Origin: Circinella umbellata
Taxonomy: Eukaryota; Mucoromycota; Mucoromycetes; Mucorales; Lichtheimiaceae
Length of the DNA stretch: 64,000 bases
Direction: 5' to 3'
Assembly: GCA_025093555.1 (NCBI GenBank)
Contig: JAIWNF010000009.1
Span: forward strand, 833,501-897,500
Part shown: positions 43,051 to 50,190 of the stretch, one piece after another
Layout of the letters: every line of letters begins with the position of its first letter
Position numbering within the stretch: the first letter of the stretch is position 1
The notes under the pieces: generated by a model
Database searches by the model: none
The model's input: only the letters and a program-made list of their open reading frames with translations
Told to the model about the DNA's origin: nothing
Made by a program: the position numbers and the translations under genes

Positions 43051-43084
43051 GTAGTGTTTAACGAAATTAATTAAAACATATAAA

Positions 43085-43192
43085 ACTAAATCTGATCAAC
43101 AACTGTTGGGCCATTCACTATCTCCCGCAATATAAGCATCTGTGTTATTCACAAGAGTAAAAGTAATATTTTTTAGGATGGATGAGTTTCTT
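43085..43192 (-). pseudogene. Half-copy (N-terminal side) of the nuclease/transposase-like gene
   Basis: Read on the minus strand this segment resembles the start region of the gene at 43868 (FTLVNNTDAYIAGDSEWPNS then SDLVL) with a premature stop, at visibly lower identity than the two arm copies share. It abuts the dehydrogenase fragment. The other half of such a copy lies at 49908-50190 in the opposite orientation. Confidence 0.45.
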
Positions 43193-43213
43193 ACATTTTT
43201 TTTAAACCCAATG

Positions 43214-43860
43214 AAAAAAAAAGGTAGCTTTGTAACCTTTGTAAACTCTGACAAAGTTTACAAGTTTACAAGTTTACAAAATGCGTGCATATTATTGGCT
43301 ACCAAAATAACCAGCAGAAAGTTAATTTCGTCAGCAGTTTACAAAGTTTACAAAGTTGACAACAGCTACCAAATGCATGAAGAGGTTGCCATGTCGACAA
43401 ATATGAAGCTTTTACCAATACTTCATTTTCTACTTATTAATAGCATTTATAATAGTAATAATATAGAATACTATTCTTCTTTTAGTGTTTATAGTAAAAA
43501 GTTAAAATAAGAACAAGATCATATTGTCAATACTTTATATCTAATACGTATATTCAAGTCTTTTTTAAATATTTGTAAACAAGTAAATTTTTATAGATGC
43601 TAGTTTATATTTGAGTTATCTGAGACGAACGATTGATGTGTGCTATATGACAACAATACACATTTTTGAAAAAAAGTTGACCAAGGTGTTTTTAGTTTTG
43701 CTAATAATGTTCTTTTAATATTCACTATTGTAACCTTTGTCAATTTTGTCAACTGCTGACGAAATTAACTTTCCGCTTGCTTACTTTGGCAGCCAATTAT
43801 ATGTAAACTTGTAAACTTTGTCAGAGTTTACAAAGTTTAGAAAGTTTACCTTTTTCTTTT
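43214..43860. mobile_element. MITE with long terminal inverted repeats, left copy (about 647 bp)
   Basis: The two ends are inverted copies over at least about 130 bases. They contain repeated GTAAACTT/AAGTTTAC units, AAACTCTGACAAAGTTTAC, TTGGCTACCAAAATAACCAG and AAAGTTAATTTCGTCAGCAG. The interior is non-coding AT-rich DNA. Flanks are AAACCCAATG and AAAAAAAATG, perhaps a decayed target duplication of 9-10 bp. Long TIRs and this duplication size suggest mobilisation by a Mutator-like transposase; that link is inferred. Confidence 0.65.
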
Positions 43861-43867
43861 AAAAAAA

Positions 43868-44798
43868 ATGCAACTTTCACTGTGCCCTGGTTCTGACCTA
43901 ATGGCAAAAGGCATTACAAGAAACACATCAGTCATCAAGATTATTACTTCAGCGCTCGTCAATGGCACAGATGATTATAATATTGGAGATAGCGAATGGC
44001 CTAACAGTTGCCGATCAGATTTAGTGCTAGAGCCAAAATCTTTATCTACTGGCTTATTACCTCCTATTATAATCAAATTTCAGTAAGCCATTGACTATAC
44101 CTTTATAAAACGCACTATTCAGTATAGTTTACAAGCTTATAAACAATATAAGACTAATCCTATTATATTGATTATCTGTATGAACACCTTGTCTAGTGAT
44201 ATTGAACAATCTATCAAACCAAGTGACATTCTAGGTTGCCATTTATACCTATATCATGGCTGGGCTGACAAATGTTTAATAATGTCTAAGAAAAATCTTA
44301 AATACATTGCCACCATCCGAAAATGCTGATCCTTTTGTCACATTTGGGTTATTCTTGGCTCAAACTACTGCTATTACTGATATTCCTTGCAAAAATGATA
44401 TATTAAATCATTTAAAGAATCTTGCTTTCAACCATTATATGAGCTTAATTAGAAATTAAAGTCATCTTGTTGATTTTGTAAAAGACCTTCTCAACAACTA
44501 GGAAAAACAATATGATGATCTTTCAAATCTCATATCTCAAGAAAACTCATCAAATGCAATACAACAATTGATTAAGAATGCTCAAGAGAAACAACGGGGA
44601 ATAAGATGAAAATTTGATGAGTTGGATGATATAAACCTTACTCCTGCTACCACTTCTGTACCTCTCAACACGTCTCCCACAGCTTCACCTTCTACTAATA
44701 CATCGTCATCATCATCAACATCTCCACATTCTAATAATACATCTTCATTATTATCAACAGCTTCACCTTCTCCTTCTTCTTATCCATCAGGAGGCTAA
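43868..44798 (+). pseudogene. Decayed putative PD-(D/E)xK nuclease/transposase-like gene, left-arm copy
   Basis: From ATG 43868 the frame reads MQLSLCPGSDLMAKGIT, VIKIITSALVNGTDD, GDSEWPNSCRSDLVLEPKSL and LLPPIIIKFQ, then TAA at 44084-44086. Beyond the stop the same frame continues (AIDYTFIKRTIQYSLQAYK, NPIILIICMNTLSSDIEQ, CHLYLYHGWADKC) before further stops and shifts, and ends in a Ser/Thr/Pro-rich tail to TAA 44796-44798. The D...ExQ-like pair (SDLVL, then IIIKFQ) and the predicted alternating strands fit PD-(D/E)xK nucleases of the kind often annotated as transposases in Mucorales. The family assignment is tentative. The right-arm copy shares the structure but lies in reverse. Confidence 0.5.
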
Positions 44799-45224
44799 TT
44801 GATATTGATATAATCTAATTGAACAATAAATTTATTGATTTACTATTCTTTTCTTTTTCTTTTACGTTACTACTACCACAATAACAACAAACCCTTAACA
44901 GGCTTTTTATGTTCTTATTTATATATATTAAAAAACAAATATTTGTAATACAAATATCGTTTTCTAGAAATAAAAATATATAGAAATAAATGATAAAATA
45001 ATTTATCAAATTATTTGTAGCTAATTATTTGTTTATTTTTTAATATATTTAATATTTCAAAAGGTTCAATTGAACCTCAAAATTTATTTTTTATTTATTT
45101 TTAAACTTTCACATATTAATCAAAAATAATAATTTAATTATTTCTGACATATAATTAAAATAAAGATCCAAAAAAATTAGTTTAAAAAAAAAGTTTAAAA
45201 ATAACATTTTTAATTCTTTTGCAG

Positions 45225-45258
45225 ATGCGATACATCTGAATCTTTAAAAGATTCTAAA
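45225..45258. other. Pair of adjacent hairpins
   Basis: GATG-CGATA-CATC is followed directly by GAATCTTT-A-AAAGATTC, an eight-base perfect inverted repeat. Two hairpins side by side in otherwise AT-only DNA resemble a small double-hairpin element. Visible in the sequence; function unknown. Confidence 0.5.
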
Positions 45259-45274
45259 GTAAGAAAATCAGTGA

Positions 45275-45450
45275 TTTTATTTGTTTTTTAATATATATAA
45301 ATAAGAACATAAAAAACCTATTAAGGGTTTGTTGTTATTATTGTTATTATGGTAGTAGTGAAGTAAAAAAAAAGAAAAGAATAGTAAATCAATAAAATTT
45401 ATTGATTCAATTAGATTATATCAATATCAATTAGCCTCCTAATTGTTATT
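45275..45450 (-). repeat. Third copy of the 3' tail of the arm gene
   Basis: Same orientation and nearly the same sequence as 47275-47410, and the reverse complement of 44791-44960. It ends in AATATCAATTAGCCTCC, where TTAGCC is the complement of the gene's last codon and stop. Only the tail and 3' flank are present, so it is a truncated duplicate. Confidence 0.6.
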
Positions 45451-45582
45451 TATTTTATTAAGTCAAATTTACATATAAATTGCATATAAACTAAAATATA
45501 TTAGGAAGAGAGCTAACTGGGGTTGAAATAATTCATTTCAACTGATATAATCTTTTTATTTTTATAAAAATAAAAGTTTATT

Positions 45583-45635
45583 AATAAGAATCAGCTTGCT
45601 ACTGCAAGCTTTCACCCTTTAGGGTAATTCTTATT
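45583..45635. ncRNA. Compact three-way junction / double-hairpin element
   Basis: A nine-base perfect closing stem (AATAAGAAT at 45583-45591 with ATTCTTATT at 45627-45635) encloses two perfect hairpins: AGCTTGC-TACT-GCAAGCT (45593-45610) and ACCCT-TT-AGGGT (45614-45625). A further perfect hairpin GTTGAAAT-AATTC-ATTTCAAC lies just upstream at 45522-45542. The two GC-richer hairpins with short loops are like the double-hairpin elements known from mitochondrial DNA of lower fungi. Whether it acts as RNA, DNA or a mobile unit is unknown; the ncRNA label is provisional. Confidence 0.5.
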
Positions 45636-46018
45636 GATATTTATTTTATAATATATTTAATATTTCAAAAATAGAAATATATAAAAATAAATAATAATTT
45701 AAGTTCTAAATTATTTTGTTTATTTTGCAATATATTTAATATTTCAAAAAGTTTAAGAATTATATTTTTTATTAAATTATAATTTTCACGTGTTAATTAA
45801 AATGATTATCTAATCATTTTTAACACATAATATAATTTAAAAATTAAAAAAATAACTTCTAAAATAAAAAATTTAACCAATTTTTAATTCTTTCTAATTT
45901 TCTGAAGATTCCAAAAGCATGGATTAAGTATAGAACATAGGGTTAATTAAAACGCAGCAATTAAAAAATTATTTTGCATATTTTAAAATTTGAATTTTAT
46001 TAATTTAAAAAAATAAAA

Positions 46019-46468
46019 ATGACAAAAAGAGAATATATCAAAACATCTCCAATTGAAAGAAAAAAGAAAAAGATAATTAATAAAAATAAAGAAATTATAG
46101 AAAGTGAAATTGATAAAAGTGTAAATTATAAAGAAGAATATTATAAAGTTAAGGAATGGAATGAAATAGTTTTAAATACATATCAACAATATAATATAAC
46201 ATTTATAAATGAATTATATTTTGCATTGAATTATTATAATAAAATATTTATTAATAAAAATGATAAAAATAAATTTATGAATAAACAAGATTATTTTTTA
46301 TTGAATTATAAAAAATTAGAATATAAAATAAGAAAGATTAAAATTAAGAAATTAAAAAAAGAGTTTGATAATCATATTAATAAAATAAATATTCTTGACG
46401 AAAAATTAAAAGAATTAGAAAAAGATTTTAATATTTATTATAATAATAATATTACTATATGTAAATAA
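46019..46468 (+). CDS. Unknown Lys/Asn/Tyr-rich ORF, 149 aa (loop ORF 1)
   Basis: ATG 46019 to TAA 46466-46468 without introns. The protein is extremely rich in Lys, Asn, Ile and Tyr. It starts MTKREYIKTSPIERKKKKII, has an aromatic middle (TFINELYFALNYYNKIF) and a likely coiled coil at the end (KIRKIKIKKLKKEFDNHI, DEKLKELEKDFNIYY). Codons are almost all A/T-ended, unlike the host genes in this window. The stop is followed immediately by the ATG of ORF 2, an arrangement unusual for a nuclear fungal gene and normal in organelle, bacterial or viral DNA. I do not recognise the family. A chance open frame of this length is possible in AT-rich DNA, but such DNA is rich in TAA/TAG, which makes it less likely. 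Confidence 0.55.
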   Translation: MTKREYIKTSPIERKKKKIINKNKEIIESEIDKSVNYKEEYYKVKEWNEIVLNTYQQYNITFINELYFALNYYNKIFINKNDKNKFMNKQDYFLLNYKKLEYKIRKIKIKKLKKEFDNHINKINILDEKLKELEKDFNIYYNNNITICK

Positions 46469-47065
46469 ATGTCATGTAAAACAAAAGTTGGAAATGACAT
46501 TTCTTATTGTAAAAATTATTTACCACAATATCGTGAAAAATGTAATTATATATGCAATATAAATAATAAAACTGACGGATTATATTATAATAAAAAGTAT
46601 AACATTTTTAATTATTGTAAAAATTATGTGCATGAAATATTATATTTTGATCATTATTGTAAAAATTATAAGCTAGAAGATATATTTTATATTATTAATA
46701 AAAATGATAAATTTTATAAAACAAAAAAAGCATTAAGTAATAGATATTATCTAAGTATAAAAAAAGATAATGAACTTTATAATAATATAGAAAGTATAAA
46801 TGAATTACAAGAGAAAGAAATTTTAGAATTTGCAGGATATGATACAAAAGATTATAATGACTTTACAAAATATAACTTATATAACAGAATTAAAAGAAGT
46901 ACAGAATTATTAGAAACTTTCAACAAAAACTTAGAAAATATAAAAATAAAGTTTTCTTTTTATACATATATAAGTAATATACAATTTAACTCTTTTAAAA
47001 AAACTTTATATAATATAATAAATATTAATGAATTTGATAATATTTTAAAAATAGCAACATTATAA
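46469..47065 (+). CDS. Unknown Cys/Tyr/Asn-rich ORF, 198 aa (loop ORF 2)
   Basis: ATG 46469 directly abuts the ORF 1 stop; TAA at 47063-47065. No introns. The N-terminal half has repeated Cys motifs: MSCKTKVGNDISYCKNYL, REKCNYIC, NYCKNYVHEI and DHYCKNYKLEDIF, with YCKN occurring three times. Such spacing could bind zinc, and CKTK-G...C is loosely like small viral zinc-ribbon proteins, but this is weak. The C-terminal half is helical and charged (LYNRIKRSTELLETFNKNLE) with a hydrophobic end. The conserved-looking Cys repeat argues against a chance frame. The function is unknown. An in-frame hydrophobic segment follows the stop (47066-47149). Confidence 0.58.
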   Translation: MSCKTKVGNDISYCKNYLPQYREKCNYICNINNKTDGLYYNKKYNIFNYCKNYVHEILYFDHYCKNYKLEDIFYIINKNDKFYKTKKALSNRYYLSIKKDNELYNNIESINELQEKEILEFAGYDTKDYNDFTKYNLYNRIKRSTELLETFNKNLENIKIKFSFYTYISNIQFNSFKKTLYNIININEFDNILKIATL

Positions 47066-47149
47066 ATATATTATATAGCATTTCTTACCTTAATTGGACC
47101 TCTTGCTTCAATATTATTTAATGTCCCTATATTGAACCTTTTGAAATAT
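47066..47149 (+). other. Hydrophobic frame continuing after ORF 2
   Basis: In the same frame as ORF 2 but after its stop, the DNA encodes IAFLTLIGPLASILFNVPI and LNLLKY before TAA at 47147-47149. It has no ATG. It could be a lost C-terminal membrane segment, a separate mitochondrial-type start (ATA), or chance. It crosses the start of the right arm at 47131. Confidence 0.3.
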
Positions 47150-47402
47150 TAAATATATTAAAAAATAAACAAATAATTAGCTACAAATAATTTGATAAAT
47201 TATTTTATCATTTATTTCTATATATTTTTATTTCTAGAAAACAATATTTGTATTACAAATATTTGTTTTTTAATATATATAAATAAGAACATAAAAAGCC
47301 TGTTAAGGGTTTGTTGTTATTGTGGTAGTAGTAACGTAAAAGAAAAAGAAAAGAATAGTAAATCAATAAATTTATTGTTCAATTAGATTATATCAATATC
47401 AA

Positions 47403-49183
47403 TTAGCCTCCTGATGGATAAGAAGAAGGAGAAGGTGAAGCTGTTGATAATAATGAAGATGCATTATTAGAACGTGGAGATGTTGATGATGATGACGATG
47501 TATTAGTAGAAGGTGAAGCTGTGGGAGACGTGTTGAGAGGTACAGAAGTGGTAGCAGGAGTAAGGTTTATATCATCCAACTCATCAAATTTTCATCTTAT
47601 TCCCCGTTGTTTCTCTTGAGCATTCTTAATCAATTGTTGTATTGCATTTGATGAGTTTTCTTGAGATATGAGATTTGAAAGATCATCATATTGTTTTTCC
47701 TAGTTGTTGAGAAGGTCTTTTACAAAATCAACAAGATGACTTTAATTTCTAATTAAGCTCATATAATGGTTGAAAGCAAGATTCTTTAAATGATTTAATA
47801 TATCATTTTTGCAAGGAATATCAGTAATAGCAGTAGTTTGAGCCAAGAATAACCCAAATGTGACAAAAGGATCAGCATTTTCGGATGGTGGCAATGTATT
47901 TAAGATTTTTCTTAGACATTATTAAACATTTGTCAGCCCAGCCATGATATAGGTATAAATGGCAACCTAGAATGTCACTTGGTTTGATAGATTGTTCAAT
48001 ATCACTAGACAAGGTGTTCATACAGATAATCAATATAATAGGATTAGTCTTATATTGTTTATAAGCTTGTAAACTATACTGAATAGTGCGTTTTATAAAG
48101 GTATAGTCAATGGCTTACTGAAATTTGATTAAAATAGGAGGTAATAAGCCAGCAGATAAAGATTTTGGCTCTACAGAGGGTCCCCGTTAATTTCATATCC
48201 GTTAATTTTCACACCTCAATAACTTCACCAAAAATCAAGGAATGGTAAAAATAACATAAGAAAATTTTCACATCCCCCTTAATTTCACTTTCACAGCACT
48301 TAGCGGCATTGAATTCTTAACAGGTATGTAAATAAAAAAAAATTATGTGATAAATATAAGGATTGTAATTAAATTAGTATATAGGATAGGTTAGTTTTTT
48401 TATTACGCCATTTACATGTCTTTTTTAAGAGTTTATTCAATGTTTATTCTCTTCTTGTTTTTCTCGCTTTAAGCCTTTAGATATCGTACTAATATCAGGT
48501 GCCTTAAACAACTTGAATTCATTTTTAGCCCATAATGCTAGTGATCGGTTTGTTATTATGGTTCGTGGGTTAAGTCTTTTTTTTCTCAGCCAGAATACTA
48601 TACTGTTCAGCTGTCAAGCCAACGTTAGATTTGGTTACTGTCATTTTGTTTTAGTATACTGTATATAGAGCAGAGATATAGAAAGATGGAAAAAATGGAA
48701 TAATATAATAGATAAATTATATCTGCATCTCTTGGGGACTATATGTAGCTTTTATTTTTTTTAAAAAAAGTCATAGATATGCTCAAATAAAAAAAGAAAT
48801 AGTTCCAAAAATGCATTAAGACGATCATATGATATAGAAATAAGTTATTAATTAATACGTATTTTGATACATTAAAAGATACTGTATACAGTAGTAAGCT
48901 GAAGTATTCAATATATGCACATTCTTGAAAAAAAATTTCATAGTATCCGTTAATTTTCACACCCCTTTATTTTCACAAAAAAATTGGGAAATGGCCCTAT
49001 AAAATTAACAGGGACCCTCTGTAGCACTAAATCTGATCGGCAACTGTTAGGCCATTCGCTATCTTTAATATTATAATTATCTGTGCCATTGACGAGCGCT
49101 GAAGTAATAATCTTGATTACTGATGTGTTTCTTGTAATGCCTTTTGCCATTAGGTCAGAACCAGGGCACAGTGAAAGTTGCAT
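47403..49183 (-). pseudogene. Decayed putative PD-(D/E)xK nuclease/transposase-like gene, right-arm copy, split by an insertion
   Basis: Minus-strand copy of the gene at 43868-44798. ATG lies at 49183-49181, with MQLSLCPGSDLMAKGIT and NGTDNYNIKDSEWPNSC at the start. The frame is interrupted by the insertion at 48174-49021, just after SDLVL. The remainder runs from 48171 to the stop TAA at 47405-47403 with the Ser/Pro-rich tail. The stop after FQ and the later frame breaks are shared with the left copy, so the gene was already dead when duplicated. Family call as tentative as for the left copy. Confidence 0.5.
48174..49021. mobile_element. 848-bp TA-flanked DNA element (Tc1/mariner-pogo type, non-autonomous)
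   Basis: The ends are inverted: CAGAGGGTCCCCGTTAATTT at the left and, read inward, CAGAGGGTCCCTGTTAATTT at the right. It sits between duplicated TA (48172-48173 and 49022-49023). The left arm keeps the empty site, so the borders are certain. A direct repeat TATCCGTTAATTTTCACACC occurs at 48196-48215 and 48944-48963. No transposase frame is present inside. The CAG-starting ends and TA target fit pogo/Fot1-like elements. Confidence 0.82.
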
Positions 49184-49190
49184 TTTTTTT

Positions 49191-49886
49191 AAAAGAAAAA
49201 GGTAAACTTTCTAAACTTTGTAAACTCTGACAAAGTTTACAAGTTTACATATAATTGGCTGCCAAAGTAAGCAAGCGGAAAGTTAATTTCGTCAGCAGTT
49301 GACAAAATTGACGAAGGTTACAATAGTGAATATTAAAAGAACATTATTAGCAAAACTAAAAACACCTTGGTCAACTTTTTTTCAAAAATGTGTATTGTTG
49401 TCATATAGCACACATCAATCGTTCGTCTCAGATAACTCAAATATAAACTAGCATCTATAAAAATTTACTTGTTTACAAATATTTAAAAAAGACTTGAATA
49501 TACGTATTAGATATAAAGTATTGACAATATGATCTTGTTCTTATTTTAACTTTTTACTATAAACACTAAAAGAAGAATAGTATTCTATATTATTACTATT
49601 ATAAATGCTATTAATAAGTAGAAAATGAAGTATTGGTAAAAGCTTCATATTTGTCGACATGGCAACCTCTTCATGCATTTGGTAGCTGTTGTCAACTTTG
49701 TAAACTTTGTAAACTGCTGACGAAATTAACTTTCTGCTGGTTATTTTGGTAGCCAATAATATGCACGCATTTTGTAAACTTGTAAACTTAAATTTGTAAA
49801 CTTGTTGTAAATTTGTAAACCTAAACTTGTAAACTTGTAAACTTTGTCAGAGTTTACAAAGTTTACAAAGTTTACCTTTTTCTTTT
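49191..49886. mobile_element. MITE with long terminal inverted repeats, right copy (about 696 bp)
   Basis: Reverse-complement counterpart of the MITE at 43214-43860 at the same position in the arm. It is longer by an extra run of TAAACTTGTAAA-type units near 49785-49830. It ends in TTTACCTTTTTCTTTT and is flanked by CATTTTTTTT and CATTGGGTTT. Confidence 0.65.
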
Positions 49887-49907
49887 CATTGGGTTTTAAA
49901 AAAATGT

Positions 49908-50190
49908 GCCCTGCTGGTCAGATTTAGTCCTAGACCCAAAATCTTTTTCTATGGGCTACTTACCTCTTATTATAATCGAATTTCAGTAGGACGTTGGCCA
50001 TACCTTTATAAAACGCGTCATTCAATATAGTTTACAAGCTTACCAATGATCCTATTATATTAATTATTTATATGAATACCTTGTCCAGCAATATTGAACA
50101 ATCTATTAAACAAAGTGACATTATTGGTTGCCATTCATACCTGTATCCTGGTTGGGCTAATAAATATCTAATAATGCCTAACCCAGCTCC
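49908..50190 (+). pseudogene. Half-copy (C-terminal side) of the nuclease/transposase-like gene
   Basis: The plus frame resumes at SDLVLDPKSFSMG and LPLIIIEFQ, then a stop, then DVGHTFIKRVIQYSLQAY and a decayed remainder (NTLSSNIEQSIKQSDI, GCHSYLYPGWANK). It is more diverged than the arm copies, and its ExQ motif is IIIEFQ rather than IIIKFQ. It matches in extent the part missing from 43085-43192, so the two halves probably came from one copy split by the inserted palindrome. Confidence 0.45.

What the first reader, a model, noticed from the sequence alone, without database searches (positions are those of the whole stretch)
43193..49915. Large nested inverted repeat carrying a dead nuclease-like gene tail-to-tail
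Two arms of about 1.9 kb, nearly identical in reverse, flank a unique 2.06-kb loop. Both arms carry the same broken gene and the same MITE at the same position; only the right arm has the 848-bp element. This gives an order of events: the gene decayed, the MITE inserted, the arm was duplicated in inverted orientation around the AT-rich loop, and the TA element inserted last. It could be a composite element or the product of hairpin-mediated rearrangement.
Basis: partly seen in the sequence, partly recalled or inferred. Interest (0 to 1): 0.8.

Follow-up and report, generated by a model that had tools for sequence, protein, structure and literature searches.

The report
Fold-back inverted duplication around AT-rich transposons
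In the genome of a mould (Circinella), a dead gene was copied backwards around a knot of very AT-rich mobile DNA, most likely by faulty repair of a DNA break that folded back on itself; it is a clear case of a known kind of rearrangement, with an unusual mobile-element gene in its loop.

Summary
The inverted repeat is real. Arms 43262-45070 and 47131-49789 differ by 10 substitutions in 1,809 bp plus one 848-bp TA-flanked element in the right arm only; the loop is 2,060 bp. The host is almost certainly Circinella umbellata. It is not a composite transposon: no second copy of the whole outer arm was found, and no target duplication is seen in the flanks (by eye). The 'MITE' is the upstream region of a head-to-head gene pair; it ends at the start codon and was found only here as a whole. 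The left arm is the original: an AT-rich fold-back element (44789-45448) spans its inner edge intact, and the right arm holds only half. The inner junction lies 1 bp from the centre of a 16-bp palindrome and cuts the end of an element with 8-bp target duplications, carrying a gene of no known family. The outer junction lies in promoter-like DNA similar on both sides. Best explanation: a break near that element end, fold-back priming, copying of the left arm, capture at the homologous promoter. Five other inverted repeats with arms of 2 kb or more lie near AT-rich elements; causation is not shown.

The parts
43262..45070 (+). left arm, the original copy: upstream region, pseudogene b, first half of AT-rich fold-back element
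   Evidence: the fold-back element continues across 45070 into the loop
47131..48173 (-). right arm, inner part: inverted copy of 44028-45070
   Evidence: 99.5% identical over 1,043 nt; differences listed
49022..49789 (-). right arm, outer part: inverted copy of 43262-44029
45071..47130 (.). unique 2,060-bp loop (spacer), about 15-17% G+C
48174..49021 (.). 848-bp Tc1/mariner-type MITE, target TA at 48172-48173 and 49022-49023; only in the right arm
   Evidence: 40 places found in the genome (lower bound), 30 of them spanning the whole query; empty site in the left arm
44789..45448 (.). AT-rich fold-back element (ends AGGAGG...CCTCCT, arms 89-94% complementary) lying at the truncated 3' end of pseudogene b
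   Evidence: members elsewhere; gene relatives continue past this point
47131..47412 (-). half copy of the fold-back element in the right arm
45062..45077 (.). 16-bp perfect palindrome AGGTTCAATTGAACCT, its centre (45069|45070) 1 bp from the inner edge of the left arm
45921..47130 (+). AT-rich element with GG-starting 22-bp terminal inverted repeat; its right end is cut by the right arm (47131-47133 fit both sides)
   Evidence: left end; complete ends and 8-bp target duplications in other copies
46019..47065 (+). gene of the AT-rich element: 347 residues interrupted by one in-frame stop at 46466-46468; cysteine-rich protein of no known family
45563..45909 (.). second, diverged AT-rich core with a three-way hairpin (about 45577-45635)
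43868..44788 (+). pseudogene b, fungal family of unknown function
   Evidence: tblastn homology runs to about 44708
43081..43194 (-). gene fragment a (residues 17-54 of P0011)
49912..50176 (+). gene fragment c (residues 48-138 of P0011)

Best explanation
This is an interstitial inverted duplication made by fold-back repair. Shown from sequence: the left arm is the template (the AT-rich fold-back element runs intact across its inner edge; the right arm has only half). The inner junction joins position 47130, inside the right terminal repeat of an AT-rich element, to the inverted sequence beginning at 45070, 1 bp from the centre of a 16-bp palindrome, with 3 bp (ATT) in common. The outer junction (43262|49789) lies in GTAAAC-rich promoter-like sequence that is similar on both sides. 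Inferred: a double-strand break at or near the element's right end was resected; the 3' end annealed back to its own strand at the palindrome; synthesis copied 1.8 kb of the left side; the new strand was captured by the other broken end through the homologous promoter upstream of fragment c, leaving the 2.06-kb AT-rich stack as the unduplicated spacer. Later a mariner-type MITE entered the right arm.
For: Arm alignment and single insertion; intact versus half fold-back element; element ends in other copies, showing what is missing at the junction; palindrome at the junction, one of 9 perfect palindromes of 12 nt or more in 2,345 bp; outer ends similar but not identical beyond the recent arms; no second full copy of the outer arm. 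A 2,060-bp spacer falls in the 766-70,466 bp range (median 3,428; 21 sequenced junctions) of the unduplicated spacers that Hermetz et al. used to infer fold-back (PMC3907307, passages); fold-back at inverted repeats near induced breaks is shown in yeast lacking Sae2 or Mre11 nuclease (PMC10622511, passages).
Against: Three bp of junction homology is weak: 14% of random joins in this AT-rich stretch have 3 or more. The palindrome coincidence was noticed after the fact, and the 141-nt stretch around it folds no better than shuffled DNA (z 0.17; 108 of 200 shuffles as good), although the small hairpin is in the predicted fold. The break at the element end is inferred. The promoter of fragment c is closer to b's own promoter (98% over 59 nt) than to a's (90% over 63 nt), so which homology captured the strand is unclear. 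Fragments a (residues 17-54) and c (48-138) are nearly complementary pieces of one gene, which could mean that the whole block was also inverted. No unduplicated allele or outgroup locus was seen.
Confidence: 0.6

Rival explanations
1. [quoted passage not shown] an inverted triplication may have collapsed to the present form.
For: Same end product: inverted copy, spacer, small homologies. Fragment c is in direct orientation to gene b, as the third copy of a triplication would be. ODIRA is proposed as a common origin of inverted copy-number variants (PMC10766186, abstract and outline only).
Against: Fragment c is only 81-85% identical to b over at most 281 bp, far older than the arms, so no recent triplication remains.
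Confidence: 0.22
2. The structure is a mobile composite or long-terminal-repeat element, the arms being its terminal inverted repeats.
For: Long near-identical arms with a gene in the loop; some other loci with the loop gene also have long inverted arms.
Against: No second full copy of the outer arm half; the flanks outside the arms are different gene fragments, with no target duplication seen; the inner junction cuts two other elements.
Confidence: 0.04
3. Assembly or read artefact (palindromic chimera).
For: Fold-back reads are a known artefact of some long-read libraries (PMC12870357, passages).
Against: That paper's tool defines such reads by a second segment mapping back within 200 bp on the other strand; here there is a 2,060-bp spacer, 10 substitutions, and an 848-bp element in one arm only.
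Confidence: 0.05
4. An old palindrome kept similar by arm-to-arm gene conversion, so that 0.55% divergence does not date the duplication. This modifies the age, not the origin, and is compatible with the best explanation.
For: 7 of the 10 substitutions lie within 300 bp of the 848-bp insertion, where heterology would hinder conversion (binomial p 0.019; permutation on mean distance p 0.024; post hoc).
Against: Only 10 differences; clustering found after the fact; the four distances tried gave p from 0.01 to 0.09.
Confidence: 0.3

Closest known systems
Fold-back inverted duplications with a disomic spacer (Hermetz et al. 2014, PMC3907307, passages; yeast system of PMC10622511, passages)
   Same: near-identical inverted arms, unduplicated spacer of a few kb, short homology at the inner junction
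   Different: interstitial and small (1.8 kb) with a second junction in homologous sequence, not a terminal deletion or dicentric; spacer is a stack of AT-rich transposons
Intrascaffold palindromes of Folsomia candida (11 of 15 blocks) and Adineta vaga (17 cases) (PMC5490193, passages)
   Same: recurrent inverted blocks in one genome, possible arm-to-arm conversion
   Different: those are blocks of collinear genes; these are small, lie near transposons, and asexuality is not shown here
Merlin / IS1595 DNA transposons (PMC8101967, passages)
   Same: most ends of the loop element start with GG, it has terminal inverted repeats and 8-bp target duplications; Merlin transposase matches are common in this genome (53), and one of them (C128:316684-317022) lies about 0.56 kb from a copy of the same terminal repeat (C128:317583)
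   Different: the loop element's gene is not a DDE_Tnp_IS1595 protein; the terminal repeat was not found in the eight Merlin loci held, L046-L053
Tc1/mariner-type MITEs
   Same: 848-bp element: TA duplication, terminal inverted repeats, 40 places found
   Different: nothing notable; autonomous partner not sought

Membership tests
Fold-back inverted duplication with spacer | near-identical inverted arms around an unduplicated spacer | tested here: met
Fold-back inverted duplication with spacer | short inverted homology where spacer meets inverted copy | tested here: inconclusive
   3 bp; 14% of random joins reach 3
Fold-back inverted duplication with spacer | dependence on a double-strand break | not testable with these tools
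   needs a genetic system
Composite or long-terminal-repeat transposon | target-site duplication outside the arms | tested here: not met
   flanks compared by eye in the alignment; they differ
Composite or long-terminal-repeat transposon | further copies with the same arm ends | tested here: not met
   of 17 matches only 2 span the query, both at this locus; C57 matches only the gene start (79%)
Merlin transposon (loop element) | GG termini and 8-9-bp target duplication | tested here: met
   of 6 copies looked at, 3 perfect 8-bp duplications (C156, C176, C151), 1 with 7 of 8 (C68), 2 not determinable (C28, C127); exceptions to GG: one end each of C156, C176 and C28 starts with AG
Merlin transposon (loop element) | encodes a DDE_Tnp_IS1595 transposase | tested here: not met
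   no such Pfam hit for the window's two ORFs or for the five family proteins scanned
Tc1/mariner-type MITE (848-bp element) | TA target duplication with an identifiable empty site | tested here: met
   away from this locus, only a 52-72-bp inner stretch recurs (9 places)
PD-(D/E)XK or other nuclease (arm gene) | recognised nuclease domain | tested here: not met
   no Pfam match above cut-off in 72 aa of b or in the 333-aa C57 paralogue; a divergent fold is not excluded

The most novel reading that the evidence does not exclude
AT-rich, hairpin-rich transposons of this fungus (the fold-back family and the elements with 8-bp target duplications) act as recurrent hinges or break sites that drive interstitial inverted duplications, so that one element system keeps generating large palindromes across the genome and carries a gene family not recognised elsewhere.
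Probability: 0.18. Interest if true: 0.65.

Novelty: new member of a known kind. Interest (0 to 1): 0.38.

Why it matters
The fold-back inverted duplications that I read about come from human disease and yeast genetics. A fungal genome with several young examples, junctions still readable and mobile elements at or near the hinges, would let one test whether particular transposons promote them. The locus also shows how a 'MITE inside a dead gene' can be a misreading of an inverted gene pair. The loop's gene family (nine relatives in a search of 5.8 billion proteins; no Pfam match above cut-off, no solved-structure match at E <= 0.001) is a separate open question.

Tried and rejected
Rejected: composite transposon; MITE inside the gene; nuclease label. 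Rejected after test: the idea that every AT-rich core is flanked by inverted copies of locus-specific DNA. In the 10 core regions compared (two of them overlapping), the arms are mostly shared between loci, so these look like fold-back elements in their own right; about 130 bp per side at one C153 copy and about 60 bp in the window are not shared. Also against a simple 'AT-rich hinge' rule: the inverted repeat at C200:770-784 kb has a 3.9-kb spacer of ordinary G+C with the AT-rich Merlin in its arms.

Led nowhere: viral-contig search with the loop protein family, 56 pattern matches and 0 relatives; plasmids with the second half of the loop gene, no match; Rfam, 2 matches in 9.5 kb, both far below gathering scores; structure prediction, mean pLDDT 61.6 and pTM 0.37, too poor to use, and of 61 PDB matches none at E <= 0.001; a second, profile search gave no new relatives.
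Full report
Where it is. The window is G000:C200:833501-897500 of a 50.8-Mb assembly in 210 contigs. A paralogue of the arm gene on contig C57 (846,436 bases) is 100% identical to a protein named from Circinella umbellata whose contig is also 846,436 bases long, so the host is almost certainly that fungus (Mucorales).

The observation. The inverted repeat is as described. Left arm 43262-45070 and right arm 47131-49789 align end to end with 10 substitutions in 1,809 bp and one 850-nt insertion, which is an 848-bp element plus a duplicated TA. The loop is 2,060 bp. Outside 43262/49789 similarity falls to about 90% with a 47-bp indel. In a self-comparison of the whole window (E <= 1e-10, 100 bp or more) every inverted pair lies within 43,085-50,181.

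The 848-bp element. Its ends are CAGAGGGTCCC...; TA lies on both sides; the left arm is the uninterrupted site. The genome search listed 44 matches at 40 places, this one included; 30 of the 40 span the whole query, and the listed copies other than the window's own are 83-95% identical over most of their length (only 40 of 181 candidates were scored, so this is a lower bound). It is an ordinary mariner-type MITE (the label rests on TA and inverted ends, from my knowledge), inserted after the duplication or kept out of the other arm.

The 'MITE'. The segment 43193-43867 ends where the protein reading of the arm gene begins: P0011 residue 1 aligns at 43868. On its left lies a fragment of the same gene in the opposite direction (43194-43081, residues 17-54). 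The two sides are an old inverted repeat (43085-43365/43725-44025, 68% overall with blocks of 78-88%). As a whole it was found only here; 9 other places share only a 52-72-bp inner stretch. So I read it as the upstream DNA of a head-to-head pair, not an insertion.

The arm gene. It is a pseudogene (in-frame stops and frame changes) of a family with 14 proteins in the search, one of them the C57 paralogue itself; 9 of the 14 carry names: Circinella umbellata, C. minor, Hesseltinella, Thamnidium (2), Cunninghamella, Helicostylum, Lichtheimia and Zychaea, all Mucorales to my knowledge (only Circinella was looked up). In the own genome, 37 matches to one 81-residue piece were listed, those at this locus included. 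No Pfam domain reached its cut-off. tblastn homology runs to about 44708; the frame ends at about 44799, just inside the AT-rich fold-back element; relatives continue with a conserved C-terminal part.

The loop. It is a stack of AT-rich mobile DNA: the second half of a fold-back element (44789-45448; 96 matching pieces to its core in the genome, this locus included), a second diverged core (45563-45909), and an element from 45921. Copies of this last element elsewhere show 22-bp terminal inverted repeats and 8-bp target duplications: GTGATTCT at C156, AAAAAATC at C176, AAATACTG at C151, and 7 of 8 at C68; C28 and C127 could not be judged. Most ends start with GG, as in Merlin; one end each of C156, C176 and C28 starts with AG. 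The terminal repeat occurs 29 times in the genome with up to 2 mismatches, the window's included; the reversed control pattern gave 0. The element carries a gene of 347 residues with one in-frame stop. The protein family has nine relatives in the database, on contigs of 1.4-2.8 kb that are probably metagenomic. It has invariant cysteines, no Pfam match above cut-off and no convincing solved relative (best E 0.11).

Polarity and junctions. The fold-back element is whole across the left arm's inner edge but only half in the right arm, so the right arm is the copy. At the inner junction the element reads AATGTCCCTATATT and then passes into the inverted arm; the C156 and C176 copies read CCCTGTATT and on to CTATACTTGATC. 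Three bp (ATT) fit both sides. The left edge lies 1 bp from the centre of the 16-bp palindrome AGGTTCAATTGAACCT, one of 9 perfect palindromes of 12 nt or more in 2,345 bp. In random joins within this stretch, 14% share 3 bp or more, and the 141 nt around the palindrome fold no better than shuffled DNA (z 0.17), so neither point proves the hairpin. The outer junction lies in GTAAAC-rich promoter-like DNA that is about 90% alike upstream of fragments a and c; b's own promoter is closer still to c's (98% over 59 nt). Fragments a (residues 17-54) and c (48-138) look like two parts of one gene, which may record a further inversion of the whole block; this I leave open.

Mechanism. A break at the element end, fold-back of the resected strand, copying of the left side and capture at homologous promoter DNA explain these points. 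The spacer length fits published fold-back cases (PMC3907307, passages), and fold-back at inverted repeats near induced breaks is shown in yeast mutants (PMC10622511, passages). The break itself and its cause are inferred. Seven of the 10 arm differences lie within 300 bp of the 848-bp insert (p 0.019, post hoc; four distances tried, p 0.01-0.09), a hint of arm-to-arm conversion elsewhere, so the age is uncertain.

Is it alone? No. Of eight other contigs fetched because they resemble the loop (C156, C127, C176, C28, C76, C112, C142, C153), three hold inverted repeats with arms over 2.5 kb: C156 (3.6-kb arms with about five differences around an AT-rich core of about 0.2 kb, with a further 1.9-kb outer part at 99.3%), C127 (4.6 kb, 99.8%, spacer 12.8 kb) and C176 (at least 2.6 kb, 99.35%, spacer 6.9 kb). 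C112 has two of about 0.3 kb at 97-99%, C76 one of 0.25 kb, C28 two under 0.16 kb, C153 palindromes at 71-85%; C142 has none listed. Two more loci, chosen because paired hits suggested it, also have them: C151 (nested) and C200:770-784 kb (at least 4.8 kb, 99.3%). Among 53 Merlin matches, the three same-contig pairs within 20 kb that cover the same profile span are all in opposite orientation; one further close pair, on C67, is in the same orientation with slightly different spans. As a rough control, 1 of 19 other held loci (about 64 kb in all, some overlapping or duplicated) has an internal inverted pair of 100 bp or more, a 210-bp palindrome at 84%; two of those 19 (L048, L049) are parts of the two arms of the C200:770-784 kb repeat, too short to show it. 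Among the mariner-type MITE copies one direct near-identical block pair also turned up (L030/L031, 2,630 bp at 100%), so direct duplications exist too. The loci were not drawn at random: this is an association only.

Novelty. The rearrangement is a new member of a known kind. I found no paper on it: searches on palindromes, inverted duplication and Rhizopus; fold-back, template switching and fungal genomes; inverted repeats and Mucorales; Merlin and Mucoromycota; Circinella umbellata; and inverted segmental duplication listed none on this genome's inverted repeats. I saw only the listed rows (for example 15 of 105 and 10 of 2,807 papers), in a library that lacks most subscription papers.

Noticed in passing
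window 46019-47065; L035:5238-6170: Gene of an AT-rich element (about 15% G+C): cysteine-rich protein without Pfam match above cut-off, nine database relatives on short contigs. An apparently one-gene transposon whose gene is not a recognised transposase.
   Followed up: partly
window 45577-45635: Three-way hairpin: 86-94% identical over 104-140 bp in 6 of 8 short genome stretches fetched for it (the other two align over longer stretches at 71-76%); DNA fold z-score about -5 on both strands. Pairing was not tested for covariation; one copy has a changed stem.
   Followed up: partly
L054/L055 (C151:321001-336000): Alternating inverted array: a self-palindrome (326106-330574, 97.6%) centred within an AT-rich element, further inverted pairs at 99% and more, and a 5.8-kb direct repeat at 99%.
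   Followed up: partly
L033/L034 (C156:524241-537084): Near-perfect palindrome, arms about 5.5 kb in all, with a spacer of about 0.2 kb; its left arm holds a 1.6-kb segment that the right arm lacks.
   Followed up: partly
C178:304439 and 309760: Inverted pair of equal-scoring matches of the arm gene family, each in an open frame of 340 codons, 5.3 kb apart.
   Followed up: no
window 43081-43194 and 49912-50176: Gene fragments a and c are nearly complementary parts of one gene on opposite sides of the palindrome, with about 11 bp in common (by eye): possible inversion of the whole block.
   Followed up: partly
L035:5-3477: Helitron-type N-terminal domain (PF14214) in an open frame of 495 codons, followed by further open frames, beside the C127 inverted repeat.
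   Followed up: no
C128:316684-317604: A Merlin-type transposase match lies about 0.56 kb from a copy of the loop element's terminal repeat: a possible autonomous partner; the stretch could not be fetched.
   Followed up: no
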